DNA of 64,000 nt, from positions 1,922,001 to 1,986,000 of the forward strand of contig NZ_UHCT01000001.1 of NCBI RefSeq assembly GCF_900458435.1, read 5' to 3'. The notes below the pieces were generated by a model. It was not told the DNA's origin and did no database searches. It saw nothing but the letters and a program-made list of their open reading frames with translations. A program made the translations under genes and the position numbers. This document shows positions 179 through 46,112 of this stretch, piece after piece. Position 1 is the first letter of the stretch. Each line of letters begins with the position of its first letter. The stretch comes from Staphylococcus carnosus. GTDB lineage: Bacteria; Bacillota; Bacilli; Staphylococcales; Staphylococcaceae.

Positions 179-320
179 TATAATTCACCTCACTTACAAC
201 CCACAATCATAAAAAGTGAGTATTAATTCTCGATTAATATTTTAATTATTTAGTTTTCTTGTTTTCATATCTTAACATAATCATAAGAAGTTGCTATATT
301 AGGTTGCCTAAGTTTCTCAA

Positions 321-330
321 AAGTATACTT
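321..330. promoter_or_regulatory. Small perfect palindrome, candidate TetR operator
   Basis: AAGTATACTT reads the same on both strands and lies in the 198-base gap between the divergent TetR gene and the hydrolase, about 46 bases before the hydrolase start. Operators of TetR repressors usually sit in such gaps, but no binding data can be seen and 10 bp is short. Confidence 0.3.
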
Positions 331-376
331 GGGGTATAGTAATCTTCGTACAATAAATGAATGGAGGCAATAATTT

Positions 377-1192
377 ATGAAACACAGAATACAAGTAAGC
401 GATGAAGTTGCATTAAACGTTGATGATTTCGGTTCAGGTCAACCATTGGTTTTCTTACACGGCTGGCCAGCAAATAATACGATGTTCGAATACCAAGCTG
501 ATTTTGTAGTTGAAAATGGTTACCGCTATGTAGGTATTGATCATCGTGGCTTCGGCTTATCTGATAGAGCAGCAGATGGATATGATTATGACACTATTGC
601 AGACGACATTCAAAAAGTAGTAGACGAATTAAACTTGAAAGATTATATCGTTGTAGGTTTCTCTGTAGGCGGTGCTTTAGCATTGAAATACGGAGTTAAA
701 CATAATAATGATAACTTGAAAAAAATGGTATTACTAGGACCTGCGGGACCAAGCTTTGTACAACGCGATGGTTACCCTTATGGATTAAAAGCAGAAGACG
801 TTACTGCTTTAATTGACTCAATCAATGACGATCAACCTAAAGCAATTGGTGACTTTGGTGAAAATTCTTTCTTCAACTCAGATGTTGAAGTATCAGAAGA
901 ATATAAAGATTATTTTAATAATATGACTTTAACTTCTTCTCTTATCGGAACAGTAAAACTTGCTGAATCATTAAGAGATGAAGACTTACGTGAAGAAATC
1001 AAATCCTTAGATTTACCTGTTTATGGTATTCACGGTACTGCAGATCATGTGTGCCCTATCGAATTCTCTGAATATCTTGAAAAAGAAGCACCTGATTATA
1101 CACTTTCTAAAGTTGAAGGTGCAGGACACGCTTTATTCTTCGAGAAAAAAGATGAAGTAAACAGATTATTATTAGAAGCTTTAAAAAAATAA
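377..1192 (+). CDS. Alpha/beta hydrolase (esterase / haloperoxidase-like)
   Basis: A 271-residue single-domain alpha/beta hydrolase. The oxyanion strand HGW is at 28-30, the nucleophile elbow GFSVGG puts the catalytic serine at about 96, and the acid and base are probably Asp223 and His251 (EGAGHALF). There is no signal peptide, so it is cytoplasmic. The start has the ribosome binding site GGAGGC. The family includes esterases and cofactor-free chloroperoxidase-like enzymes; the substrate cannot be read from sequence. A divergent TetR regulator lies upstream and an intrinsic terminator follows, so it is probably a single-gene inducible unit. Confidence 0.85.
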   Translation: MKHRIQVSDEVALNVDDFGSGQPLVFLHGWPANNTMFEYQADFVVENGYRYVGIDHRGFGLSDRAADGYDYDTIADDIQKVVDELNLKDYIVVGFSVGGALALKYGVKHNNDNLKKMVLLGPAGPSFVQRDGYPYGLKAEDVTALIDSINDDQPKAIGDFGENSFFNSDVEVSEEYKDYFNNMTLTSSLIGTVKLAESLRDEDLREEIKSLDLPVYGIHGTADHVCPIEFSEYLEKEAPDYTLSKVEGAGHALFFEKKDEVNRLLLEALKK

Positions 1193-1212
1193 CTACTTAA
1201 TATAGATTTATT

Positions 1213-1245
1213 TATGAGGCGCTATCATGCGCCTCATTTTTTATT
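1213..1245 (+). terminator. Intrinsic terminator after the hydrolase
   Basis: Stem ATGAGGCGC / GCGCCTCAT with a six-base loop is followed by a T-rich run. Confidence 0.85.
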
Positions 1246-1269
1246 TTTATTAATATTCAGAATTTTCTA

Positions 1270-1298
1270 TTGAAATGCCTTTTGTTTCGTGCTATGAT
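1270..1298 (+). promoter_or_regulatory. Promoter of the his operon
   Basis: TTGAAA (1270-1275) and TATGAT (1293-1298) are separated by exactly 17 bases, a good SigA promoter. Transcription would start near 1305, leaving a leader of about 60 bases. The leader contains a 7-bp hairpin (TTTTACT 1315-1321 with AGTAAAA 1336-1342). There is no room for a T-box and no run of His codons. Confidence 0.7.
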
Positions 1299-1367
1299 AC
1301 TGTCATTAATTCATTTTTACTTTAGTTCGGTAGAGAGTAAAAGTGTATGTGAAAGCGAGGCTAAGAA

Positions 1368-2198
1368 ATGGACTACATCGAATATCAAGACAAAGTGCTG
1401 GAACGTAAAAATTTAGAATTCAAATTTTTAAATTATTTTAAAAACCATCATTATACAGTAATTGATTTGCATTTTATCGAACGATTAAATTGGCAGCAGT
1501 TAACCCAAGATGATTTAGAGAGTATGAGTACTAGAAGCATTTGGAAAAATGGTCAAAACTTCTTTGCATTGCGCAACGACTGGACAGATCAGCTTCAACA
1601 TTATGCAAGAACCTTTGATTTGAATTTCAAACGTGCAGTTTATGCAGGTCCAATTGCTAATAATGAACATATAAGCACCAATCTTGGTATTGAAGTTTTC
1701 AATCCATCTTACGAAGATATGCTGACAAGCTTTCAATACATGTTGAAATTCATAAAAGAAGAAATGCAGCAACCAGTCGACTTTGCAGTAATTGGTCATT
1801 ACCAATTACTAAACTTGCTTTTATCGGAATCAGAGCAAACACCAGAAATCTTACAACTGATAAATGAACGCAACATTTCAGAACTAAGTAAAAAATTATC
1901 AGAAATACATCCTCTGGTAAATTTACTGAAACAGCCTACTCATTTACAGTTGGATTATATTCCATCCCTTATTCCTAACGACCACCCTACCTATTTATCA
2001 TTATTACGCTGGTCTGAGGAATTAAAACGAGTTGGTATTGAAAGTATTCATTTAGACATTACAACAATGCCGCCTAAGTCATATTATATTGGTAGTTTTA
2101 TGCAAATATTTAAAAATGATCAGTCAGAACCTATAATGTCGGGCGGACATTATGATGGCGAAATTGAAGGTTTCGGCTTTGGTATTAAATTGGATTAG
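1368..2198 (+). CDS. hisZ: ATP phosphoribosyltransferase regulatory subunit HisZ
   Basis: A 276-residue protein distantly related to the catalytic core of histidyl-tRNA synthetase, first gene of the his operon and directly upstream of a short-form hisG. In this arrangement HisZ is needed for activity and histidine feedback of the short HisG. It is shorter than many HisZ proteins (about 320-390 residues) but typical of the divergent staphylococcal version. The C-terminal SGGHYDGEIEGFGFGI matches the glycine-rich motif of class II synthetase-like folds. The assignment rests on position plus this motif. Confidence 0.85.
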   Translation: MDYIEYQDKVLERKNLEFKFLNYFKNHHYTVIDLHFIERLNWQQLTQDDLESMSTRSIWKNGQNFFALRNDWTDQLQHYARTFDLNFKRAVYAGPIANNEHISTNLGIEVFNPSYEDMLTSFQYMLKFIKEEMQQPVDFAVIGHYQLLNLLLSESEQTPEILQLINERNISELSKKLSEIHPLVNLLKQPTHLQLDYIPSLIPNDHPTYLSLLRWSEELKRVGIESIHLDITTMPPKSYYIGSFMQIFKNDQSEPIMSGGHYDGEIEGFGFGIKLD

Positions 2199-2210
2199 GA
2201 GGTAAGTACT

Positions 2211-2828
2211 ATGTTAACTGTTGCCCTCAGTAAAGGAAGATTACTCAAAGACTTTATCAAATTCTTAGAACGAAATAACAATCATGTATGGGCAGATGCA
2301 ATAATTCATCGCGAACGTAAATTACAAATCACTGCAGACTCTATTAAATTCATACTAGTAAAAGGCTCAGACGTACCGACATATGTAGAAGAAGGTATTG
2401 CAGATATCGGGATAACTGGCAGTGATATTTTAAAAGAAAGACCTAATCGCAATATTAATAATTATATCGATCTCCCATTTGGAGAATGTCATTTTTCTGT
2501 AGCCGCTAAACCGAACGTTACTAATATACAGCGAGTAGCCACAACATATGTAAAAACAACACGTGATTACTTTAATCAAAAGGGCACTGATATCAGCATC
2601 ATTCAATTATCCGGTTCAGTTGAATTAGCTGCTGTAGTCGATATGGTAGATGCAATAGTAGACATTGTACAAACAGGTACAACGCTTAAATCGAATGGTT
2701 TGGAAGAGAGAGAACAAATCGGTGAAATCAATGCACGTCTTATCACAAATAAGCATTCATTTTTCAGCAAATCAAAAGCAATTGAAAATTTCATCCAACA
2801 ATTGGGGGTTTCTATTCATGCTCAGTAA
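2211..2828 (+). CDS. hisG: ATP phosphoribosyltransferase, short form (HisG)
   Basis: First committed step of histidine synthesis, joining ATP and PRPP. At 205 residues this is the short form that lacks the C-terminal regulatory domain and depends on HisZ. The start [11 protein letters not shown] is characteristic of the family, and the PRPP-binding region [15 protein letters not shown] is near residues 145-160. A strong ribosome binding site (AGGAGG) precedes the ATG. The 3' end overlaps hisD by 11 bases, consistent with translational coupling. Confidence 0.95.
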
Positions 2829-4077
2829 AAAAGAATTTTATCATCATTTTGAAACAGCATCGGCTTTAAATCAAAAATTAATTAATAACGTCCAAAACAT
2901 TATTGAAAATGTTCGAGTACATCAAGATGAAGCTCTTTTTCAATATAATCAACAATTTGATAATGTCGAGCTTTCAACGCTTGAAATATCTCAGACTGAT
3001 ATTGATAACAGCTTAGATAAGATTTCTTCCGAATTACGAGATGCGCTTAAAGAAAGTTACGAAAACATAAAATCCTTTCAAGAACGTATTAAACATGAAA
3101 ATGTTATCGGAAAAAATACGAGTTTAATATATAATCCACTAGAAAGTGTCGGTATCTATGTGCCTGGCGGCAAAGCTGCTTACCCTTCTACTGTATTAAT
3201 GACTGCAACACTAGCTGAAGCAGCAGGTGTCGAAAATATCATTGTTGTAACACCTCCCCAACCTGAAGGTGTCGCACCTAGCATTTTAGCTGCTTGCAAA
3301 ATCGCTGGTGTCAATCGTGTATTCCAAGTGGGCGGAGCACAAAGTATTGCTGCTTTAGCTTTTGGAACAGAAACCATTCCGAAAGTAGATAAAATTGTTG
3401 GGCCAGGTAACCAATTTGTCGCTACTGCTAAGCAATTACTTTATGGGCAAGTTGGTATCGATCAGATTGCAGGTCCAAGTGAGATTATGATTATAGCCGA
3501 TGAAACATCTGAACCTGAGTTTATTGTACAAGATATTCTCGCTCAAGCTGAGCACGATGAAAATGCACGTACCTTCTTACTTTCTACGAGTAAAGTACTT
3601 TTAGAAAAAGTAGAAGCATTATTACCTGAAGCGATTAATAAAGCACCTAGAAAAGCAATAATTGAACCAAGCATCCAAAATTTCCATTATGCAATATTAA
3701 CAAAAGACAACGAAGAAAATATCGAAATCGCTAATTTTGTAGCACCTGAACATTTATCAATTCAATCAAGCAACCCTGAACAATATATTCATAAAATCAA
3801 ATATGCTGGTGCGATGTTTTTAGGGCCCTATGCTCCAGAAGCACTTGGTGATTATAATGCTGGTCCAAGTCATGTATTGCCGACAAACCAAACTTCTCGT
3901 TTTACAAATGGTCTTACAGTCAATGACTTTTTAACAAGTCATTCTGTCATCAGCTACAATAAATCAACGTTTAATCAGCTTGCAGAAGGCGCGATGGAAA
4001 TTGCACATACAGAAGGATTATACCAACATGAAGAATCGGTGCGTGTCAGAGTGAATAAGGTGGTGCAAGAAGAATGA
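2818..4077 (+). CDS. hisD: Histidinol dehydrogenase
   Basis: Catalyses the last two oxidations, histidinol to histidine, with NAD and zinc. The start was set at ATG 2818 ([10 protein letters not shown]), inside the hisG end and preceded by GGGGG at 2804-2808, because the frame further upstream is shadow sequence within hisG. This gives 419 residues, the normal size. Family motifs include [23 protein letters not shown] and [10 protein letters not shown], and AEHDENA is in the catalytic and zinc-binding region. The stop overlaps hisC by 4 bases (ATGA). Confidence 0.96.
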
Positions 4078-5078
4078 TTAACATTAACCAAAATGAAAGT
4101 CCTATCCCTGCTTTGACTCAAGAAGAGATTCTAAAAATAGTAGGCTCTTCTGATTTCAAAGTATATCCGGAGGGACAATATAATGATTTTTTACAAGCTT
4201 ATGCTGATTACTATAATTTAAACGTCAACCAAGTTTTAGCAGCAAACGGCTCAGATGAATGGATTCAAAAATGTATGCTTACATTACCAAAGGGACCAGT
4301 TTTAGCGTTGAATCCAGACTTCGTGATGTATACAGAGTTCGCACAACAAACAGACCGCCCTATTGAATATGTAGAAAGCGATGAAAATTTCCGATTTTCA
4401 CTTGATACAATACTCTCGCGAATCGAAGAGGTGCAGCCTGCTTTCTTCATCATGAGTGTGCCGCATAATCCGACTGGTGTACAGTATCCTACAGAATTTT
4501 TACTCGCAATCAGCGATAAATTGAAAAGTATCGGAAGTTATTTTGTTTTAGATGAGGCGTATATTGAATTCGGAAAAACCATTGATATTCCGCTTCAATC
4601 CCATCTCATCATCATGAAAACGCTAAGTAAAGCCTTTGCTTTAGCAGGATTACGTATCGGTATCGTCATTTCAACACCAGAAACGATACAACAACTTAAT
4701 CGTCTTGCACATCCCTATCCAATGAGCACCTTATCATTACGTCTCGCTGAAGCACTTTTTAAAGACCAAAAGCGTGTAAAACAATTAATTGCTGAACAAC
4801 GTTTCTTGTGCCGTAAATTACAAGATATTTTCAACCAATATGTTGCCGATAAAATTACAATAATTCCTTCACAAGCTAATTTTGTATTCACATACGGCAA
4901 ACATGCACGTGAACTAGGTGAATATGTCAAAGCACATGGCTTCTTGCCTCGTATTTATAAAGAACCTTTATTATCAGAAGCCGTACGTTATTCTATCGCA
5001 ACAGAACAAGAGCTCGATCAATTGGAAGCAATTGTAAAAGAATGGAGTGATCAATTTGAGTTACAGAAAACAACGTGA
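4074..5078 (+). CDS. hisC: Histidinol-phosphate aminotransferase
   Basis: PLP-dependent class I/II aminotransferase acting on imidazole acetol phosphate. The 334-residue protein has the PLP lysine in the context KTLSKAFALAGLRIG and the DEAYIEF strand (cofactor-binding Asp) before it. The N-terminus INQNESP is typical. ATG overlaps the hisD stop (ATGA) and the 3' end overlaps hisB. Confidence 0.94.
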   Translation: MININQNESPIPALTQEEILKIVGSSDFKVYPEGQYNDFLQAYADYYNLNVNQVLAANGSDEWIQKCMLTLPKGPVLALNPDFVMYTEFAQQTDRPIEYVESDENFRFSLDTILSRIEEVQPAFFIMSVPHNPTGVQYPTEFLLAISDKLKSIGSYFVLDEAYIEFGKTIDIPLQSHLIIMKTLSKAFALAGLRIGIVISTPETIQQLNRLAHPYPMSTLSLRLAEALFKDQKRVKQLIAEQRFLCRKLQDIFNQYVADKITIIPSQANFVFTYGKHARELGEYVKAHGFLPRIYKEPLLSEAVRYSIATEQELDQLEAIVKEWSDQFELQKTT

Positions 5079-5637
5079 AACTAAAGAAACAGCAATCGAT
5101 ATTAGAATGGACTTGAACGACAATCAAGCATCCTCAATTAATACAGGTGTCGGCTTTCTTGATCACATGCTGACATTATTCAGCTTCCATAGCGGCATTA
5201 ATCTGCAAATCAACGTCCAAGGTGACACTGAAGTAGATGATCACCATACAACAGAAGATATCGGAATTGTATTAGGTCAGTTACTCTTAGAAGCCATCAA
5301 AGATAAACAATCCTTTACACGCTATGGCGCTTTCTATATTCCGATGGATGAAACATTAGCACGTGTTGTTACAGACATCAGCGGTCGACCATATCTTTCT
5401 TTTAATGCTGAGTTTTCCAAAGAAAAAGTGGGTACTTTCGATACTGAACTTGTTGAAGAATTCTTCCGAGGCCTCGTGATAAATGCGCGTTTAACGACAC
5501 ATATCGATTTAATCCGTGGAGGCAATACACATCATGAAATCGAAGCAATCTTCAAAGCATTTGCCAGAAGTTTAAAAATTGCATTATCTGACGATGGTTC
5601 AAAAGGTGTGCCTTCCTCGAAAGGCGTGATTGAATGA
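5056..5637 (+). CDS. hisB: Imidazoleglycerol-phosphate dehydratase
   Basis: Manganese-dependent dehydratase of the histidine pathway. Metal-binding repeats are visible: GFLDHMLTLFSFHS, DDHHTTEDIG, HIDLIRGGNTHHEIEAIFKAF. I place the start at TTG 5056, which has the ribosome binding site GGAGTGA about 5-8 bases upstream and gives 193 residues beginning SYRKQRETKET; from memory this aligns with the S. aureus N-terminus. An in-frame GTG at 5047 lies on the ribosome binding site itself and is less likely. The start overlaps hisC and the stop overlaps hisH by 4 bases. Confidence 0.94.
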   Translation: MSYRKQRETKETAIDIRMDLNDNQASSINTGVGFLDHMLTLFSFHSGINLQINVQGDTEVDDHHTTEDIGIVLGQLLLEAIKDKQSFTRYGAFYIPMDETLARVVTDISGRPYLSFNAEFSKEKVGTFDTELVEEFFRGLVINARLTTHIDLIRGGNTHHEIEAIFKAFARSLKIALSDDGSKGVPSSKGVIE

Positions 5638-6215
5638 TAGCAATCGTTGATTATGGTGTCGGAAATATCAAAAATGTTGAACGTGCAATTCACCACCTGA
5701 GTTATGAAACAGCTTTAACAAATGATCCTGAAGTTATTCGTTCAAGCTCTCATATCGTTTTGCCTGGAGTCGGTCATTTTAAAGACGCCATGCAAGCACT
5801 CAAAAATTCAGGACTAGATAAACTATTAATTGAACTGCAAAATGATAAACCATTTATCGGAATATGTCTTGGTATGCAGTTAATGTTCAATCATAGTGCA
5901 GAGGGAGACACAGATGGTCTTGGCATGATAAATGGTGAAGTTGTCCCTATCAAAACAGACTATCCAGTCCCCCACCTTGGTTGGAACAATTTAGAAAGTA
6001 AACACCCCTTACTTAATCAGGATGTTTACTTTATTCATTCTTTTTACGTACAAACAGATGCACCGATTATTGCTGCAGCCGATTACGGCATACCGATTAC
6101 GACGATTGTCCAATCAGGTAATAAAATCGGCATACAGTTTCATCCAGAGAAAAGCGGCGACTATGGTTTGGAAATTTTAAATCAGGCATTGAAAGGCGGT
6201 TTTATTCATGATTGA
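5634..6215 (+). CDS. hisH: Imidazole glycerol phosphate synthase, glutamine amidotransferase subunit
   Basis: Class I glutamine amidotransferase that feeds ammonia to HisF. The catalytic Cys is in GICLGMQLM, and the His-Glu pair is in [11 protein letters not shown] near the C-terminus. Length 193 residues, normal. The start overlaps the hisB stop (ATGA) and the end overlaps hisA by 8 bases. Confidence 0.95.
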
Positions 6216-6912
6216 AGTATGGCCAGCGATAGACCTTATTGATTCAACAAGTGTGAGATTAACCGAAGGTGATTATGAAACTAAAGAAGCAATGTCACGT
6301 ACAGCAGAAGAAGCTATTGAATTTTATAGCCGATATAACTGCGTCACACGTATTCATGTCATAGATTTAATTGCTGCAAAGCAACAAACGCCTTTAGAAA
6401 CGAATTACATTGAACAACTTGTCGGGTTAACTCAATTACCATTTGAAGTTGGTGGCGGTATCCGTACACTTGAAACGATTGAAACCTATTTTGATAAAGG
6501 CATTCAAAACGTCATTATAGGCACTAAAGGTATTCAAGATCCAGAATGGTTGAAAACTGTTGCAGAGAAATACCCTGGACGTATTTATATCTCTGTAGAT
6601 GCCTACATCGATGAAATTAAAGTCAACGGATGGTTAGAAGATACAGGATTAAATTTGTTTGATTACGTTCAGCAAATTGATAGTGCACCTTTAGGCGGCA
6701 TTATTTATACCGATATTTCTAAAGATGGAAAATTAGAAGGACCTAATTTTGAATTAACCGCAAAACTCGCAGCATCAACGAAACTCCCAGTCATCGCATC
6801 AGGCGGTATTCGAAGCAAAGAAGACTTAGAACGGTTAGAAAAAGCTGGTGTTGCTGTAGCGATTGTAGGCAAAGCAGCGAATACACAAAGCTTTTGGGAG
6901 GGATTATCGTGA
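6208..6912 (+). CDS. hisA: ProFAR isomerase (phosphoribosylformimino-AICAR ribotide isomerase)
   Basis: TIM-barrel isomerase of the histidine pathway, 234 residues. The first-strand catalytic Asp is in WPAIDLIDS; phosphate-binding loops [11 protein letters not shown] and [12 protein letters not shown] mark the two half-barrels. The start overlaps hisH, and the TGA stop overlaps the GTG start of hisF. Confidence 0.95.
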
Positions 6913-7673
6913 TTAAAAAACGTATTATCCCTTGCTTAGATGTAAAAGATGGTCGTGTAGTAAAAGGGGTTCAATTTAAAGGACTGCGAGATATCGGAGA
7001 CCCTGTCGCATTAGCCGCTTATTATAATGCAGAACTTGCTGATGAATTGGTTTTCCTAGATATTTCTCGTACTGAAAATGGTCATCAAATGATGTTAGAT
7101 ATTATTGAAGAAACAGCATCAAAATTATTCATTCCTCTCACTATCGGCGGAGGTATCAGTTCGACTGATGATATATCAACCTTGCTGAAGCACGGTGCAG
7201 ATAAAGTTTCATTGAATTCCAGTGCTTTACGCAACCCATCGTTAGTAAAAGAGGCCAGTGAAAAATTCGGTTCCCAATGTATTTGTATTGCTGTAGATGC
7301 GAAATGGGAAGATGAACGTAATGATTGGTTTTGTTATACCCATGGCGGCAAACAGCCGACAGATATCCGTGTCCTTGACTGGGTGCGCCAAGTAGAATAT
7401 TTAGGTGCTGGAGAGTTGTTAGTCACAAGTATGGATTACGACGGTGTCAAACAAGGTTTTGACCACCAACTGCTGAATCAGATTAATACGGTGGTATCTA
7501 TACCAGTTATCGCATCAGGCGGCGGCGGAAACGCACAGCATTTTGTAGATCTATTCCAACAAACAAATGTTTCTGCAGGACTGGCTGCAAGTATCTTTCA
7601 TGATAAAGAAACAACCATCGGCGCTGTTAAAACGTATTTAAAAGATAAAGGAGTGGATGTAAGATGGCACTAA
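6909..7673 (+). CDS. hisF: Imidazole glycerol phosphate synthase, cyclase subunit
   Basis: TIM-barrel cyclase partner of HisH. The start is GTG 6909 (GTGA overlap with the hisA stop), with the ribosome binding site GGGAGGG 7-13 bases upstream, giving 254 residues beginning with [19 protein letters not shown]. The two phosphate-binding motifs [11 protein letters not shown] and [11 protein letters not shown] and the catalytic Asp residues ([19 protein letters not shown]) are present. Confidence 0.95.
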
Positions 7674-8293
7674 AACCAGACTTTTCCAAGGGACTTGTAC
7701 CAGCAATCTTACAAGATAATCAAACAAAGCAAGTCTTGATGTTAGGCTATATGAATGAAGAAGCCTATGAATTGACCTTACGTGATAAAGTATGTTGGTT
7801 CTACTCTCGCAGTAAAGGCCGTTTATGGAAAAAAGGCGAAAGTTCTAAAAACTATCAGCACGTTGAAGATATTCGTCTTGATTGCGACCAAGATACAATA
7901 CTTGTGATGGTTACACCGGATGGTCCTACTTGCCATACTGGCAATACCAGCTGCTTCAACACAGAAGTTCCCTTCTTTGTCGATAGTTTAGAACAAATCG
8001 TAACTTCTCGCGTAAATAGCGATGATGAAAAATCTTATACACAATATCTATTGAAATCTGGTGTTGAAAAAATCACTAAAAAGTTTGGAGAAGAAGCGTT
8101 TGAAGTTGTGATTGCAGCAATGAAAAAAGATAAAGCAGAACTTACGAATGAAACTGCAGATGTCTTGTATCACTTATTTGTCTTATTAAATGCTTGCGGT
8201 GTTTCTATTTCAGAAGTCAAAGCAGTATTACAATCCAGACACCAAAAAAGCGGCAATTTTAAAGGTGAAAGAAAAGATATTAAAAAATGGTAA
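7664..8293 (+). CDS. hisI: Bifunctional phosphoribosyl-AMP cyclohydrolase / phosphoribosyl-ATP pyrophosphatase
   Basis: Fusion of the second and third pathway activities (also named hisIE). The cyclohydrolase half (about 1-110) shows CWFYSRSKGRLWKKGESS and DCDQDTILVMV with GPTCHTGNTSCF; the pyrophosphatase half (about 120-209) has the MazG-like helix KFGEEAFEVVIAAM and ETADVLYHLFVLL. It overlaps hisF by 10 bases and is the last gene of the operon, followed by a strong terminator. Confidence 0.95.
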   Translation: MALKPDFSKGLVPAILQDNQTKQVLMLGYMNEEAYELTLRDKVCWFYSRSKGRLWKKGESSKNYQHVEDIRLDCDQDTILVMVTPDGPTCHTGNTSCFNTEVPFFVDSLEQIVTSRVNSDDEKSYTQYLLKSGVEKITKKFGEEAFEVVIAAMKKDKAELTNETADVLYHLFVLLNACGVSISEVKAVLQSRHQKSGNFKGERKDIKKW

Positions 8294-8311
8294 ATACTAT
8301 AATACAAAAAC

Positions 8312-8355
8312 AAAGCGATGGTGCACTGAAAAGTATCACCATCGCTTTATTTTTA
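8312..8355. terminator. Bidirectional terminator between his operon and merA-like gene
   Basis: A perfect 12-bp stem (AAAGCGATGGTG 8312-8323 with CACCATCGCTTT 8337-8348) has T-rich sequence on the outside in both directions and lies between convergent genes. Confidence 0.88.
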
Positions 8356-8356
8356 C

Positions 8357-9679
8357 TTATTTGAATAAATCATTAAACGCTTCTGCCATTGTTGGATGTG
8401 TATAAATGTTATTTCCTAATACACTGTATGGAATTTTTTGATCAATTGCGAGTTTTACCAAATTGATAAGTTCTTCAGAACCAGTACTATATAGCGTAGC
8501 TCCTAAGATTAAACCAGTTTTTTCATCCATAACTGCTTTCAACATACCTCGTCCATCATTATTTATTTTATGACGCGGAATATTATTAACAGGTAATTTT
8601 GTTTCATACACGCTATAACCCGCTTCTCTCGCTTCATCTCCTGTCATACCTACTCTAGATAATGGAGGGTCAATAAATACTGTATAAGGCACAGCACCTC
8701 TATTTTGAGTACTGCGTTCTCCGTTGCCGAATAATTGATCTTTTATAATTCTGAAATCATCTAAAGAAATATACGTAAACTGCATACCGCCAACAACATC
8801 GCCTGCTGCATACACATTTGGTACATCTGTTTGTAAATGATCGTTAACGACGATTTCTCCTCGTTCTCCTACTTTTATATCTGTATTTTCTAAACCTAAA
8901 CCTTGTGTATTCGGCTGACGACCTGTCGCTAGCAACACAGCATCTGCTTCATATTCACCATCATTTGTATAAACGATAGTACCATTCTCAATATCTTCAA
9001 AACGTTTTGTGTCAACGTTAAACACCAAATTTACACCCGCTGCAGTTAAATCTTCTTTTACTAATTCAACAATCTCAGGATCTTCTTTAGGTAAAATATC
9101 GTCATGATTTGCAAGTACAGTGACGTCTACATCTAAATGCGCAAAAAGTGAAGCAAATTCTAAAGCAATGTATTCGGCACCTACAATTACTAATTGTTTA
9201 GGTTTAAATGGCAAATCCATAATACCTGCTGAATCATATAAGTGTTCTGATGTTTCAATGCCTTCAATATCCGGAATGACAGGAGTTGCACCTGTATTAA
9301 TTAAAATATCATCTGCAGTCAACTCACCTAAATCTTGATTTTCATGATCTAATAACACAATTTCATGGTTCGATTTGAATTGTGCAACTGCATCAATGAC
9401 ATCAATCGAAGGTTCATCTGCCAACATATGATAATTTTTTTGATTTAATGCACTTACAACCTGACGCTTGCGATCAAAGGCACTTTCGAATGAGTCACCT
9501 TCTAATCCATCGTGAATTAATGTTTTTGAAGGAATGCACCCTACATTAATACATGTTCCGCCATACATTTTTTGATCTCTTTCTATCATAGCAACACGTT
9601 TACCTTGTGATGCTGCAAATTTTGCTAATGTTTTTCCTGCTTTACCAAAACCAATTACTGCCAAATCATACTGTTCCAT
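8357..9679 (-). CDS. merA: Flavin disulfide reductase, MerA/RclA-like (hypothiocyanous acid reductase type)
   Basis: A 440-residue pyridine nucleotide-disulfide oxidoreductase with N-terminal FAD motif VIGFGKAGKTLA, redox pair Cys43/Cys48 in GGTCINVGCIPSK, NAD(P)H motif IVGAEYIALEFAS and FAD motif VYAAGDVVGG. In S. aureus the homologous MerA, under the Rrf2 regulator HypR, protects against hypochlorite and hypothiocyanite. The gene directly upstream here is a HypR-like regulator, which supports this function over lipoamide dehydrogenase or true mercuric reductase (no heavy-metal domain, no mer genes). Cytoplasmic, probably co-transcribed with hypR (29-base gap). Confidence 0.85.
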   Translation of the reverse strand: MEQYDLAVIGFGKAGKTLAKFAASQGKRVAMIERDQKMYGGTCINVGCIPSKTLIHDGLEGDSFESAFDRKRQVVSALNQKNYHMLADEPSIDVIDAVAQFKSNHEIVLLDHENQDLGELTADDILINTGATPVIPDIEGIETSEHLYDSAGIMDLPFKPKQLVIVGAEYIALEFASLFAHLDVDVTVLANHDDILPKEDPEIVELVKEDLTAAGVNLVFNVDTKRFEDIENGTIVYTNDGEYEADAVLLATGRQPNTQGLGLENTDIKVGERGEIVVNDHLQTDVPNVYAAGDVVGGMQFTYISLDDFRIIKDQLFGNGERSTQNRGAVPYTVFIDPPLSRVGMTGDEAREAGYSVYETKLPVNNIPRHKINNDGRGMLKAVMDEKTGLILGATLYSTGSEELINLVKLAIDQKIPYSVLGNNIYTHPTMAEAFNDLFK

Positions 9680-9708
9680 ATTTTATCCTCCTCAGAAGTT
9701 GAATCACT

Positions 9709-10173
9709 TTATATCGTTGTTACTGTTTCTTCTAAAATATCTTGAATTGTAAAATCGTCATAATACTGTTTCAACAATGCTTGTTCTTTTGCATGGTGTA
9801 CTTTCATCGTATCTTCAATTTTTTGAGATATTTCACAATCACTCTCTTTAGTTCCCGTGTACAAACGTCCTTGTGTGCTATGTGCTGTAAAAATCTGAAA
9901 TAAATCACCCAGGTTAGCAGTTGCGGTGCTTTCATTAGCTTGATACCCGCCATATTTTCCGCGAATCGTTTCAACGTATTGATGTTCGACTAATTGACTT
10001 GTCACACGCCGTAATTGTACGGGATTGATACATATCAACTCTGATAATGCTCTACTGCTGAAACGTTCATCTGCATGTTTCGTTAAAAAAGCCAGGAAGT
10101 GTACTGCGATATTAAATTCTAAATTGATGGTAGTCACCTTCTTAATGTAACTTTTATAATTACATTTAAACAT
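9709..10173 (-). CDS. hypR: Rrf2-family redox-sensing regulator, HypR-like
   Basis: Winged-helix Rrf2 regulator. The core begins NLEFNIAVHFLAF and continues with the recognition segment RALSELICINPVQLRRV and the wing RGKYGGYQ. Counted from the codon before NLEF, the two cysteines fall at 33 and 98, close to the redox cysteines 33 and 99 of S. aureus HypR. The start is uncertain. ATG 10173 (ribosome binding site AGAGG) adds 15 residues including an extra Cys4. The position where related proteins begin is an ATC codon (10126-10128), which nevertheless has an excellent ribosome binding site (AAGAAGGTGA) 6 bases upstream. GTG 10137 is another option but overlaps that site. Confidence 0.82.
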   Translation of the reverse strand: MFKCNYKSYIKKVTTINLEFNIAVHFLAFLTKHADERFSSRALSELICINPVQLRRVTSQLVEHQYVETIRGKYGGYQANESTATANLGDLFQIFTAHSTQGRLYTGTKESDCEISQKIEDTMKVHHAKEQALLKQYYDDFTIQDILEETVTTI

Positions 10174-27179: not shown

Positions 27180-27385
27180 ATAGGACTGGCTGCTCAAATT
27201 ATAGAGGTTAAGCAACTTTTAGCTGCTTAACCTTTTTTATACTCTTTTTCTTCAATCATAGTGTCGAATTCTATATTTTTTAATTTCCAGTGTAGTTGAT
27301 ATAAAATGATTCATAGGCGCAACTTATCTCCTTTAATTTTGGTGTGGTTACTTTAAATTATAGAGATAATTGCGCTATTTTTATA
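27180..27385 (-). mobile_element. Probable internally deleted ISL3-type insertion sequence remnant
   Basis: On the minus strand a strong ribosome binding site (AAAGGAGATAAG) leads to ATG 27314, whose first 12 codons (MNHFISTTLEIK) resemble, from memory, the N-terminus of ISL3-family staphylococcal transposases. The frame then diverges and stops at 27252 after 20 residues. The site is buried in a 13-bp hairpin with the upstream GCGCAATTATCTC, as in many IS elements that silence read-through. A second hairpin (AGGTTAAGCA/TGCTTAACCT, 27205-27233) lies at the other side. The sequence AAATTATAGAG occurs at both ends in the same orientation. The central transposase is missing. Confidence 0.5.
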
Positions 27386-35219: not shown

Positions 35220-35591
35220 ATGGCTCCAAAACCATATGAAGTCATAGGTAAAGAGAGATTATATAGTATGATAGATTACTTTTATTCGCTTGTTGAAAAA
35301 GACGAAAGAATAAATTATCTATTTCCTGGAGATTTTGCTGAAACCAGTCGCAAACAAAAACAATTTTTAACACAATTTCTAGGCGGACCAGCACTATATA
35401 CTGAAGAACATGGCCACCCTATGTTAAAAATGCGGCATATGGAATTTAGAATTACGCCGTTTGAAAGAGATGCTTGGTTAGACAATATGAATAAAGCGAT
35501 TCAACATGCAGAACTGCCTGCAGGTGTTGGTGAATACCTATATGAAAGATTGCGTATAACCGCACATCATATGGTTAATTCTGAAAATTAA
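35220..35591 (+). CDS. Truncated haemoglobin, group II (YjbI-like)
   Basis: A 123-residue 2-on-2 globin. The heme-binding proximal His is at about 73 in KMRHMEF, and FPGDFAETSRKQKQFLTQFLGGP is the conserved CD/E segment. Group II globins of Firmicutes occur next to yjbH and bind O2, NO or peroxide. It lies 15 bases upstream of yjbH, so the two are probably co-transcribed and linked to redox or nitrosative stress. Confidence 0.92.
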   Translation: MAPKPYEVIGKERLYSMIDYFYSLVEKDERINYLFPGDFAETSRKQKQFLTQFLGGPALYTEEHGHPMLKMRHMEFRITPFERDAWLDNMNKAIQHAELPAGVGEYLYERLRITAHHMVNSEN

Positions 35592-35606: not shown

Positions 35607-36392
35607 ATGTCTGAAGAATTGAAATTAATATGTAACAATAGACAAGATGAAACCAATCTTTCACCTGTGAGTAAAATTGAAATTTATTCTTTCTTCGATC
35701 CTTTTGATGAAGATTGCTTCAAACTTTCAGCAATCTTGTCAAAATTAAGAGTTGAATATAAACAATATATCCGTATTCGTCATATTTTAAACCCATCATT
35801 GAGAATTTTGACGAAATGTCAAGCACAAAGCAGCTCTGAAAACGATAATATCGCGTTAGCATACAAAGCAGCAGAGTTACAAGGTCGCTCTCGCGCTGAG
35901 CGTTTCATCCATTTGATGCAGAATGAAATTATTCCTAAACGAGATATTATTACAGAACAAATGATAAAAGATGCTGCTAAAAATGCAGGTTTAGATTATG
36001 AAGTTTTCAAGGAAGACTTAAAGAGCGGAAAACTTAAAGAGAGCTTGAAAGTTGATTTGCACATTGCTCGTGAAATGGAAATAGATCAAGCACCTTCCCT
36101 TGTTTTCTTCAATGAAGATGTTACTGAAGAAGGGTTGAAAGTTGAAGGTTTATATCCTTATCATATTTATACTTATATTATTAATGAATTGATGGGTACA
36201 CCTATTGAAAAAGAATTACCGCCTAAACTTGAGACTTATATAAAAGAACAACAATTTGTTACATTTGAAGAATTATTAACGATATATGAATGGCCAGAAA
36301 AGATGTTGCTGAAAGAGTTGAAGAAATTAGCTCTGCAACAAAAAATAGAAAAACTCAGCAATCCTGAAGGCGACTTCTGGAAAGCGAAATAA
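35607..36392 (+). CDS. yjbH: YjbH, ClpXP adaptor for Spx degradation
   Basis: A 261-residue DsbA-like thioredoxin-fold protein. The active-site region DPFDEDC has one cysteine instead of CxxC, as I recall for S. aureus, so it acts as a proteolytic adaptor rather than an oxidoreductase. The segment RIRHILNPS and the cis-Pro loop region QAPSLVFF are conserved, and a helical C-terminal domain follows (about 195-261). It delivers Spx, encoded at 41769 in this window, to ClpXP and so sets the disulfide-stress response. Confidence 0.92.
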   Translation: MSEELKLICNNRQDETNLSPVSKIEIYSFFDPFDEDCFKLSAILSKLRVEYKQYIRIRHILNPSLRILTKCQAQSSSENDNIALAYKAAELQGRSRAERFIHLMQNEIIPKRDIITEQMIKDAAKNAGLDYEVFKEDLKSGKLKESLKVDLHIAREMEIDQAPSLVFFNEDVTEEGLKVEGLYPYHIYTYIINELMGTPIEKELPPKLETYIKEQQFVTFEELLTIYEWPEKMLLKELKKLALQQKIEKLSNPEGDFWKAK

Positions 36393-36479: not shown

Positions 36480-36806
36480 CTATCCAATACATGTATTGGA
36501 TTGCATTTAACATATACATTTCCCCTATAATCTCAAAACCTCTTTAAATTTATATAACTTACAATACATTTTACAACCATATTTATTCGTACTCCACTAA
36601 GGCCTCCGCTACTATTATCTCTGCTACCCAATTGCTCGTAATTAAATTTTTATTTTTAATTTATCAATTTATCTTATGCTAAATAATTTGTTTATACTTT
36701 AATTCTATCACACGAAAACAAATGTTTTATATAACAAATTATATGTTATATTCGAATTGAGATATTTTGCATTATTAATTATTAAAAAATGATTGGAGGA
36801 ATTATT
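36480..36806. promoter_or_regulatory. Upstream region of the staphopain gene
   Basis: AT-rich gap without a gene. An inverted repeat TATAAC (36730-36735) / GTTATA (36745-36750) with a 9-base spacer overlaps likely -10 sequences, so it could be an operator. No convincing -35 was found. Confidence 0.35.
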
Positions 36807-37966
36807 TTGAATAACACCAAGTCTCTTTTAAAAAGCTTTACTATTATTTTGTTCTCATTGATTATGGCACTAAGCGGACTACTCTCTTTCTCAACATCAA
36901 GCCAAGCACAAGCAGTACACAAAGCACCTTTAAAAGTAAAAGTCAGCAACACTGAAGTTCCTGCGAAAGCTGAACAACAAGCTGAAACTCAATTCTCCAG
37001 CTACGCGCAAGCTTTGTCTCAAATCGACAAATCAGGTACAAATGGAGAATATCAATTAGGTAAGCCTTTTAAAATTTATAAATTTAATGGACAAGAAGAC
37101 GGCAACTATTACTTCCCTGTATTACAAGGCGAACATATTAAATATGTATTGACTGTTACTCCTAAAAATGAAAATGATGTCAACGCCAATAAAAATAGTG
37201 CAAATTACAGTGTGCGTATTTCTAAATTTATCGCAGATTCATTAAATCAATATCGCCAAGCAAATACACCAATCACTATATATACAAATAAAGATGGTTA
37301 CTTTGCAGAGCATAATCATAAGATTGAAATGATCAAACAAAATTAGCAGATGATAAAACTGCTCCAAGCACACCAGCTGCCCCTAAAATGCAAATGAACA
37401 AGACAGTGGACGCTTCACAACCAATTTCTCAACAAAGAAGTGTTGCTACAAAATATGTCAACACATTACCTCACTTCCAAATCCGTGAAACTCAAGGCAA
37501 TAATGGTTGGTGTGCAGGATTCACTATGGCTGCATTATTAAATGCTACTAAAAATACAAGCCAATACAGAGCACAAGATATTATGAGAACGATTCACCCT
37601 GGTTTATCAGGACAGCGATTCCAGTTTACAGGTTTAACACCTGATGAAATGATTCAATATGGTCGTTCACAAGGAAAAAACCCAACTTATTATAACAGTA
37701 TGCCAAGTTATGATATGGTAGACCAATATACATCAGATAATAAGGGTATAGCTATACTAAGTGAAAGAGTAGAATCTACTAACGGACTACATGGACGTCA
37801 TGCTATGGCCGTGGTAGGAAATGCTGTACTCGCAAATAATCAAAAAGTAATTGTATTTTGGAACCCATGGGATAGTGACGTATCATTACAACCAGTAGAT
37901 AGTAACATTATTCCAGTTTCAGACGGTTCTCACTTTAGATGGTTTGCTTCTATCCCTGGTTACTAA
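36807..37966 (+). pseudogene. Staphopain-family cysteine protease, frameshifted (prepro and catalytic parts in different frames)
   Basis: The first part (TTG 36807, ribosome binding site GGAGG 7 bases upstream) encodes a signal peptide (ALSGLLSFSTSSQAQA, cleavage before VHKAP) and the staphopain propeptide (GKPFKIYKFNGQEDGNYYFPV). It stops at 37344-37346. The mature domain continues in another frame, open from 37328: QGNNGWC with the catalytic Cys at codon 37511, GRHAMAVVG with the catalytic His, FWNPWDS with the Asn. Restoring one A in the A-run at about 37327-37329 would rejoin them (KIE-NDQTKLADD). All catalytic residues survive. The intact staphostatin follows. A sequencing error cannot be excluded. 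Confidence 0.88.
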
Positions 37967-37996
37967 ACTGGTTACTGAAAAGGAATGACTTGTAAT

Positions 37997-38326
37997 ATGG
38001 ATAAAATAAACATTAATGTGAAATATCTCGAATCTTTATCAAAAGCAGAAGAAGAATTATTGAATCACTTTAAAGGCGAATGGATCAGCCAAGATGATTC
38101 GTTATCAGTTAATATACGAATACTTTTTGCGGAACCTAGCGACTTAGAAGATATATATGATATCAAAACAATAAGTACTACGGATAACGAATTAACTTTG
38201 TCACAAACTTCAACTCAAGATTTTGTAGTTTGTTTAAAGAAGAAGGATTTACAACATATCAGTTATGAAGTTATGGATATTGAAGGTATCGGAAGTTCTA
38301 AGCCTTATTTATTAGAAAAAGGATAA
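37997..38326 (+). CDS. Staphostatin (cytoplasmic inhibitor of staphopain)
   Basis: A 109-residue protein directly downstream of the staphopain gene. Similarity to staphostatins is low except at the C-terminus: EGIGSSKPYLLEKG matches the inhibitory IGTS loop, with the glycine that occupies the P1 position of the protease cleft. It protects the cytoplasm from prematurely folded protease. The start is taken at ATG 37997, which gives the family length; the ATG at 37985 abuts the AAAAGGA site with no spacing. Confidence 0.82.
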   Translation: MDKININVKYLESLSKAEEELLNHFKGEWISQDDSLSVNIRILFAEPSDLEDIYDIKTISTTDNELTLSQTSTQDFVVCLKKKDLQHISYEVMDIEGIGSSKPYLLEKG

Positions 38327-38450: not shown

Positions 38451-38549
38451 AAAAAAAACGCCGTGTATTCAGACACGGCGCTAAACAAAGGGGATGGGAG
38501 AAATTTTTCACTTCAAACAAAGGGGTATGTTTGTTATGTGATTAATTTC
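38451..38549 (-). ncRNA. rsaE: Small regulatory RNA RsaE (RoxS homologue)
   Basis: The minus strand from about 38549 reads GAAATTAATCACATAACAAA, then two C-rich single-stranded motifs (TACCCCTTTG and CTCCCATCCCCTTTG) and ends in a strong terminator (CGCCGTGT/ACACGGCG, 38459-38480) with an eight-T run. This is the sequence and layout I know for RsaE, which base-pairs through its UCCC motifs with ribosome binding sites of central-metabolism mRNAs. Its place next to pepF matches S. aureus. About 99 nt. Confidence 0.92.
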
Positions 38550-38557
38550 ATGGTCAT

Positions 38558-45906: not shown

Positions 45907-46008
45907 CAGAAAAGACTCTATTTTATGACTTCGAAAAAATTATGTAATAACTAACCTATTACAGGAATATACATATTTTCGAGTTTAAATTTCTCTTATC
46001 ATTTTTAC

Positions 46009-46089
46009 ACGCTTCCCTACGCTAGTGCTAACTAGATCAGGTTCAAAGGGTTGATAATATATCTTTCAGCCTATACGGCACCCCTAGCA
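46009..46089 (-). ncRNA. TPP riboswitch aptamer (THI element)
   Basis: The minus strand shows all conserved blocks: AGGGGTGCC, GGCTGAAAG, ACCCTTTGAACCTGATCTAG, GTTAGCACTAGCG and TAGGGAAG. It binds thiamine pyrophosphate and turns thiC off through the downstream terminator. The element appears fully intact although thiC is frameshifted. Confidence 0.96.
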
Positions 46090-46112
46090 ATGAATATTTA
46101 ATTTACAAATTT

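What the first reader, a model, noticed from the sequence alone, without database searches (positions are those of the whole stretch)
36807..38326. Staphopain gene broken by one base while its staphostatin inhibitor is intact
The prepropeptide and the catalytic domain are in different frames, separated by a single missing base in an A-run near 37327. Signal peptide, propeptide, and the catalytic Cys, His and Asn are all otherwise preserved, and the cognate inhibitor gene follows in good shape. This points to very recent inactivation, phase variation by A-tract slippage, or a sequencing error. The cassette sits between yjbH and rsaE-pepF, a place where S. aureus to my knowledge has no protease.
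Basis: partly seen in the sequence, partly recalled or inferred. Interest (0 to 1): 0.7.

Follow-up and report, generated by a model that had tools for sequence, protein, structure and literature searches.

The report
Recently broken staphopain gene, inhibitor intact
A food-associated Staphylococcus (most likely S. carnosus) carries a secreted protease gene that was knocked out so recently that the rest of it, and the gene for its inhibitor, still look unspoiled; it is most likely an ordinary young pseudogene, not a switch.

Summary
A staphopain prepropeptide (PF14731, 36807-37346) and catalytic domain (PF05543, 37388-37966) lie in different frames, followed by an intact staphostatin (37997-38326). 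It is the only C47 gene found in the genome, most likely S. carnosus.

The cassette sits between yjbH and pepF in 8 of 84 genus genomes.

The break is young: the catalytic domain differs from that copy by 33 bases but 1 amino acid, so under neutral decay the break spans at most about 7% of the branch. Four of 21 assessable staphopain copies in the genus are broken, apparently independently, all upstream of the catalytic domain; yjbH and pepF are broken in 1 of 84. A 1-base break close to this place is published for S. aureus scpA (PMC9684519).

Phase variation is unlikely (no run over 4 bases near the break) and no slippery heptamer lies there. Real recent loss fits best; sequencing error cannot be excluded without reads.

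The parts
36807..37346 (+). Staphopain signal peptide and propeptide, TTG start with a GGAGG ribosome site at 36795-36799; the frame ends in a stop before the catalytic domain
   Evidence: PF14731 at 2.8e-41 over residues 42-178; matches the proregion of 1x9y at 4.3e-35
37328..37346 (+). Zone in which the two frames overlap and the break must lie; no homopolymer over 4 bases, no X-XXY-YYZ slippery heptamer
   Evidence: the scan left out heptamers ending in G; by reading there is none of those in the zone either
37388..37966 (+). Staphopain catalytic domain (peptidase family C47), open, with active-site Gln 37493, Cys 37511, His 37799, Asn 37862; in another frame than the propeptide
   Evidence: PF05543 at 9.1e-82; 8oig and 1cv8 best PDB matches; residues
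37997..38326 (+). Staphostatin, the intracellular inhibitor, intact, with the inhibitory IGSS loop
   Evidence: ORF; PF09023 26.8 bits, cut-off 25; loop Gly and Ser invariant in the 10 sequences aligned
35607..36392 (+). yjbH (spxH), the upstream neighbour that marks the place; gene name recalled
   Evidence: PF13743 at 6e-48; a match in 84 of 84 genus genomes
38454..38551 (-). RsaE/RoxS small RNA between inhibitor and pepF
   Evidence: Rfam RF01820, 92.2 bits
38651..40459 (-). pepF oligoendopeptidase, the downstream neighbour
   Evidence: TIGR00181 682.7 bits; a match in 84 of 84 genus genomes

Best explanation
This is a staphopain-staphostatin cassette of a third staphopain lineage, inherited vertically at the yjbH-pepF place in one clade of the genus. 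The secreted protease was inactivated in this strain very recently by a small frameshift at the end of the propeptide. Translation from the normal start now makes a secreted propeptide stump without enzyme. The catalytic domain has no recognisable ribosome site of its own, so active protease is probably not made. The cytoplasmic inhibitor can still be made but has lost its partner; it has not visibly decayed because too little time has passed. Shown here: the frames, the families, the place, the open sister copies, the lack of decay, and more broken copies in the genus than in the flanking genes. Inferred: that the mutation is real and not a sequencing error, that no protease is made, and that loss is tolerated or favoured in a rich food or skin niche.
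For: Pieces in different frames, both strong family matches. Same order in 7 other genomes, 6 of them with the protease frame open from a start codon; one origin in the tree, support 87/85. Catalytic domain against G017: 33 nt and 1 aa different, dN/dS 0.007; at most about 7% of the branch since the break if decay is neutral. The other 3 broken copies also keep catalytic dN/dS of 0.018-0.059, within the 0.015-0.32 of five intact pairs. Staphopain broken in 4 of 21 assessable copies against 1 of 84 genomes for yjbH and for pepF, Fisher p 0.005. Similar breaks elsewhere in G000: 6 others kept among 416 ORFs, 412 kb. Published analogue: S. aureus isolate BJI040, 1-nt loss in scpA at ORF nt 532-536, and 13 of 13 group V isolates without mature enzyme (PMC9684519 section 11).
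Against: One genome only; no reads and no second strain of the species could be examined. A catalytic domain without decay is equally what a sequencing error would give. The 4 of 21 counts copies in unnamed assemblies, some of which may themselves carry errors. Selection for loss is not shown. The one amino-acid change in the catalytic piece falls on the window's branch.
Confidence: 0.75

Rival explanations
1. Sequencing or assembly error: the gene is intact in the living strain.
For: The catalytic domain shows no decay. Single-base breaks are the usual residual error of long-read-only assemblies (recalled); how G000 was sequenced is unknown. The sister genome, published as PacBio-only (PMC5635325), shows frame breaks in a globin and a His_biosynth gene in the same 64 kb.
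Against: G000 shows few breaks. Of 416 ORFs with a counterpart (412 kb), 15 were flagged and 7 kept after inspection, staphopain among them. If the other 6 are all errors, about 0.017 breaks are expected in a 1.16-kb gene (0.039 if all 14 other flags count), against 3 of 20 other staphopain copies broken. The run at the site is at most 4 bases.
Confidence: 0.2
2. Phase variation: the gene is switched on and off by slippage in an A-tract, so part of the population has an intact frame.
For: Intact inhibitor and undecayed catalytic domain; a published S. aureus break lies in an A stretch nearby (PMC9684519).
Against: In G000 the longest homopolymer is 4 in the last 150 nt before the catalytic match and 6 in the gene region; over all 22 copies 4-7 and 5-7 (the G001 copy is cut by a contig edge). 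Classical switch tracts are longer (recalled). The four breaks in the genus lie at different places and one is an in-frame stop, not a shift.
Confidence: 0.03
3. Programmed ribosomal frameshift or two separate functional proteins: the split is normal for this gene.
For: The catalytic piece kept strong constraint since the split from G017.
Against: In the propeptide frame the scan finds X-XXY-YYZ heptamers only at 36828 and 36930, far from the overlap zone (heptamers ending in G were left out of the scan). No ribosome site by pattern before the catalytic ATG. Six of the 7 relatives at this place encode one open frame.
Confidence: 0.02

Closest known systems
Staphopain A / ScpA (S. aureus; EcpA in S. 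epidermidis), PDB 1cv8
   Same: Propeptide, catalytic domain and downstream staphostatin in one cassette; the tree places this lineage beside the group I read as A-type; the catalytic piece scores 242.6 bits with 1cv8 (that 1cv8 is type A is recalled)
   Different: Different chromosomal place (yjbH-pepF); own group of 8; broken here; the inhibitor scores with Staphostatin_B and not with Staphostatin_A at E 0.001
Staphopain B / SspB and staphostatin B / SspC (PDB 1x9y, 1pxv, 1y4h; type recalled)
   Same: Propeptide matches 1x9y at 4.3e-35; inhibitor matches PF09023 and 1qwx weakly
   Different: Catalytic domain is further from these chains, 179-184 bits, and outside the group I read as B; no trypsin-like (PF13365) gene next to it, the nearest being about 24 kb away
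Naturally broken scpA of S. aureus clinical isolate BJI040 (PMC9684519 section 11)
   Same: One-base frameshift in a staphopain between propeptide and catalytic domain; by alignment to two 388-residue S. aureus proteins it lies about 4-12 codons downstream of the break zone here, and by a third, 399-residue one right at it
   Different: Another species and lineage; there the missing protease was confirmed by western blot

Membership tests
Staphopain (peptidase family C47) | C47 catalytic domain match above the curated cut-off | tested here: met
   273.3 bits against 22.6
Staphopain (peptidase family C47) | Papain-like Gln, Cys, His, Asn | tested here: met
   All four present in the catalytic piece; roles recalled
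Staphopain (peptidase family C47) | Signal peptide and staphopain propeptide in one frame with the catalytic domain | tested here: not met
   Propeptide present (141.8 bits) but in another frame: a broken member, not a working one
Staphopain (peptidase family C47) | Secreted, active cysteine protease | not testable with these tools
   Needs an assay; expected absent
Staphostatin | Staphostatin domain directly downstream of a staphopain | tested here: met
   PF09023 26.8 bits, cut-off 25; starts 30 nt after the staphopain stop if ATG 37997 is used
Staphostatin | Inhibitory-loop glycine conserved | tested here: met
   IGSS; loop Gly and Ser invariant in 10 of 10 aligned; role recalled
Staphostatin | Inhibits the cognate staphopain | not testable with these tools
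   Needs an assay
Phase-variable (contingency) locus | Long simple repeat at the switching site | tested here: not met
   Longest run 4 near the break
Recent pseudogene | Broken frame with little decay, open orthologues elsewhere | tested here: met
   dN/dS 0.007; open frames in 6 of the 7 others at this place
Recent pseudogene | Break confirmed in the organism | not testable with these tools
   No reads and no second strain available

The most novel reading that the evidence does not exclude
Staphopain genes across the genus may be a place of recurrent, short-lived null alleles: lost again and again in single lineages, upstream of the catalytic domain, while the inhibitor is kept. That is what fluctuating selection on a shared exoprotease (loss in rich, domesticated or intracellular niches, keeping elsewhere) would leave behind.
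Probability: 0.3. Interest if true: 0.5.

Novelty: new member of a known kind. Interest (0 to 1): 0.3.

Why it matters
If real, this is another species group in which a staphopain has been lost by a fresh mutation, like S. aureus isolates in which loss of staphopain A changes infection behaviour (PMC9684519 section 11). It may also bear on why some S. carnosus strains secrete no exoprotease, the trait for which TM300 was chosen as a production host (PMC5694512 section 8); TM300 itself was not examined. It further points to a third staphopain lineage with its own inhibitor at a fixed place, useful for the study of protease-inhibitor coevolution.

Tried and rejected
Phase variation and programmed frameshifting were checked by run lengths and a heptamer scan and not supported. 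A split-form protein in other isolates was sought with the two pieces apart: the catalytic piece found 3 proteins (2 partial S. aureus staphopains, 1 unnamed fragment; 55-66% identity) and the propeptide piece 1 (61%), none close to the window. The nearest full-length database cluster (P0001, 34 members; catalytic 99.5% and propeptide 92.7% identical) may hold S. carnosus copies, but its members cannot be listed. The genome-contig scan returned one locus, S. schweitzeri. The promoter and terminator scan gave no more than shuffles. NCBIfam matched neither protease piece nor inhibitor. S. carnosus LTH 3730 was considered as the strain, but its chromosome is 2,645,106 bases (PMC5043556, whole text).

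Paper searches: (listings only; passages read of PMC5880176, PMC11083402, PMC9684519, PMC5320583, PMC3214034, PMC10572719, PMC8443034, PMC5694512 and PMC7913919; sections). In what I saw of them there is no report of this broken gene; most subscription papers are not held.

Scripts: searches (wrong orientation for minus-strand loci; stopped with an error after its first part) were replaced by 47 and 65 for the affected parts. The background count was replaced. One search flagged 15 of 416 ORFs as broken in G000; after and reading the pieces I kept 7 (staphopain, 4 other shifts, one of them doubtful because the mirror search flags it too, and 2 internal stops) and set aside 8 (5 stops within the first 40 residues, which fit a different start, and 3 shifts with a first piece of under 30 residues).

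Full report
What is there. The window holds, in order on the plus strand, yjbH (35607-36392), a staphopain prepropeptide (36807-37346), a staphopain catalytic domain (37388-37966) and a staphostatin (37997-38326), then RsaE and pepF on the minus strand. The prepropeptide matches Staphopain_pro (PF14731) at 141.8 bits and the catalytic domain Peptidase_C47 (PF05543) at 273.3 bits, but in different frames. The frames overlap only in about 37328-37346. Active-site Gln, Cys, His and Asn are present (roles recalled). The inhibitor matches Staphostatin_B just above the cut-off (26.8 against 25 bits) and keeps the loop residues. A search of the whole genome finds one C47 gene only.

Which organism. 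The genome's PTS enzyme I shows no difference from PDB chain 2hro_A in the printed alignment of 570 residues. That this chain is from S. carnosus is recalled; the table names no organism. The nearest relative, G017, has 556 of 573 residues identical. Its contig of 2,659,676 bases has exactly the length published for S. condimenti DSM 11674 (PMC5635325, first of three parts read). The window therefore most likely comes from S. carnosus. It is probably not TM300: a second contig of 5,450 bases matches staphylococcal rep and cadmium-resistance plasmids, while TM300 is described as free of plasmids (PMC5694512 section 6).

The place. yjbH and pepF matches were found in 84 of 84 genus genomes, on one contig in 79. 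In 8 of these 79 the gap holds the staphopain cassette (2,095-5,215 bases); in the other 71 no C47 match lies there (median gap 664, range 266-9,764). The 8 are also the 8 genomes with the most similar yjbH, 92% or more against 82% or less in the rest. In a tree of the 22 catalytic domains they form one group (support 87/85) next to a group of 8; a further group of 6 stands apart. S. schweitzeri (G058, by the contig length shared with L001) has one copy in each of the latter two. I read the group of 6 as type B, because the inhibitor beside its member G006b scores 234 bits with Staphostatin_B, and the group of 8 as type A by elimination and recall. So the cassette looks like an old, vertically inherited resident of this clade and a third staphopain lineage.

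How young the break is. Against G017 the 64 kb are colinear at 90.5-92.7%. The catalytic piece differs by 33 bases, 1 of them changing an amino acid (dN 0.0022, dS 0.324, ratio 0.007); the ratios are 0.10 for the propeptide, 0.008 for yjbH, 0.019 for pepF and 0.33 for the inhibitor. With G049 as outgroup, amino-acid changes on the window and G017 branches are 1 and 0 in the catalytic piece, 3 and 4 in the propeptide, 3 and 3 in the inhibitor, 4 and 2 in pepF. About 71 neutral amino-acid changes would be expected over the whole branch (76% of sites taken as nonsynonymous, my assumption), so a break older than about 7% of it is rejected at 5% if the broken gene decays neutrally. The inhibitor shows no faster change on the window's branch.

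Recurrence. Nineteen of 84 genomes have C47 genes, 22 copies in all. One copy (G001) is at a contig edge. Of the other 21, four lack an open frame from a start with a signal peptide: G000, G020, G055 and the first copy of G080. Three show frame changes; G055 has an in-frame stop. Each has an open sister copy in the tree, so four separate events are the simplest count. In all four the catalytic domain is open, as in 22 of 22, and an inhibitor-like ORF follows; by my loose motif rule one follows in 19 of 22 copies. Catalytic dN/dS in the four broken-open pairs is 0.008-0.059, in five intact pairs 0.015-0.32, and 0.078 in one pair with the edge copy. yjbH and pepF are broken or incomplete in 1 of 84 genomes, the same one, G057; 4 of 21 against 1 of 84 gives p 0.005. 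Against this reading: the numbers are small, the flanks are housekeeping genes under stronger constraint, and some unnamed assemblies may carry errors.

Error or mutation. Of 416 G017 ORFs with a counterpart in G000 (412 kb in four regions), 15 were flagged as broken in G000. Seven were kept after a second look, staphopain among them (the reasons are in Tried and rejected). If the other six were all errors, about 0.017 breaks would be expected in a gene of this size, against 3 of 20 other staphopain copies broken: roughly 9 to 1 for a real mutation, or 4 to 1 if all 14 other flags are counted as errors. G017 also carries frame breaks, among them the globin and a His_biosynth gene in the same 64 kb.

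Mechanisms tested. The longest homopolymer is 4 in the last 150 bases before the catalytic match and 6 in the gene region, too short for a classical switch (recalled). The scan for slippery heptamers finds two, at 36828 and 36930, none in the overlap zone. The catalytic piece has no ribosome site by my pattern. So the gene most likely yields a secreted stump and no enzyme.

What is known. In S. aureus, staphopain A is secreted as a zymogen and staphostatin A protects the cell (PMC9684519 section 11; PMC8443034 passages). In 13 of 13 group V clinical isolates the mature enzyme was not detected. One of them, BJI040, had a 1-base loss in an A stretch at scpA nucleotides 532-536. By alignment this lies about 4-12 codons downstream of the break zone here with two S. 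aureus proteins, or right at it with a third. In bovine S. simulans, staphopain A orthologues were reported in 7 of 8 isolates (PMC5880176 passages). S. carnosus TM300 is said to secrete no soluble exoprotease and to have an unusually high number of truncated genes (PMC5694512 sections 6 and 8). The TM300 genome paper itself is not held. A search of the 8 genomes of this clade found no M4 metalloprotease (aureolysin type, recalled) but did find trypsin-like families in all 8, including a 293-residue frame in G000, so staphopain is not the only candidate exoprotease gene.

Verdict. A real, young loss of a secreted protease in a third staphopain lineage is the best reading (0.75). Sequencing error (0.20) is the main rival and needs reads. 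The single case is ordinary; the recurrence across the genus is the more interesting part and remains a small-sample lead.

Noticed in passing
G000:C1 about 2241085-2243253 (L054:1085-3253), minus strand: A 720-residue AraC-type regulator of G017 (PF12833) is spread over four pieces in three frames in the window's genome.
   Followed up: partly
window 6208-6912 and 35220-35591, counterparts in G017: A His_biosynth gene and a bacterial globin gene, open in the window, are split over two frames in the S. condimenti-like relative: residual errors or real losses.
   Followed up: partly
L024:7230-7550 and L027:5665-5985: The staphostatins at the same place in G065 and G064 are only 36% identical to the window's, and the G065 one scores as Staphostatin_A while the window's scores as Staphostatin_B: fast inhibitor change beside a slower protease.
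   Followed up: partly
L029:2483-5834: G049 has about 3 kb of extra DNA between yjbH and the staphopain gene.
   Followed up: no
G057:C1:1932638-1935244: Both yjbH and pepF are broken or incomplete in this one genome of 84.
   Followed up: no
G000:C2:1-5450 (L056): Small second contig resembling staphylococcal rep plasmids with cadD cadmium resistance.
   Followed up: no
window 27324-27381 (+) and 45997-46095 (-): sau-5949 small RNA and a TPP riboswitch, both ordinary.
   Followed up: no
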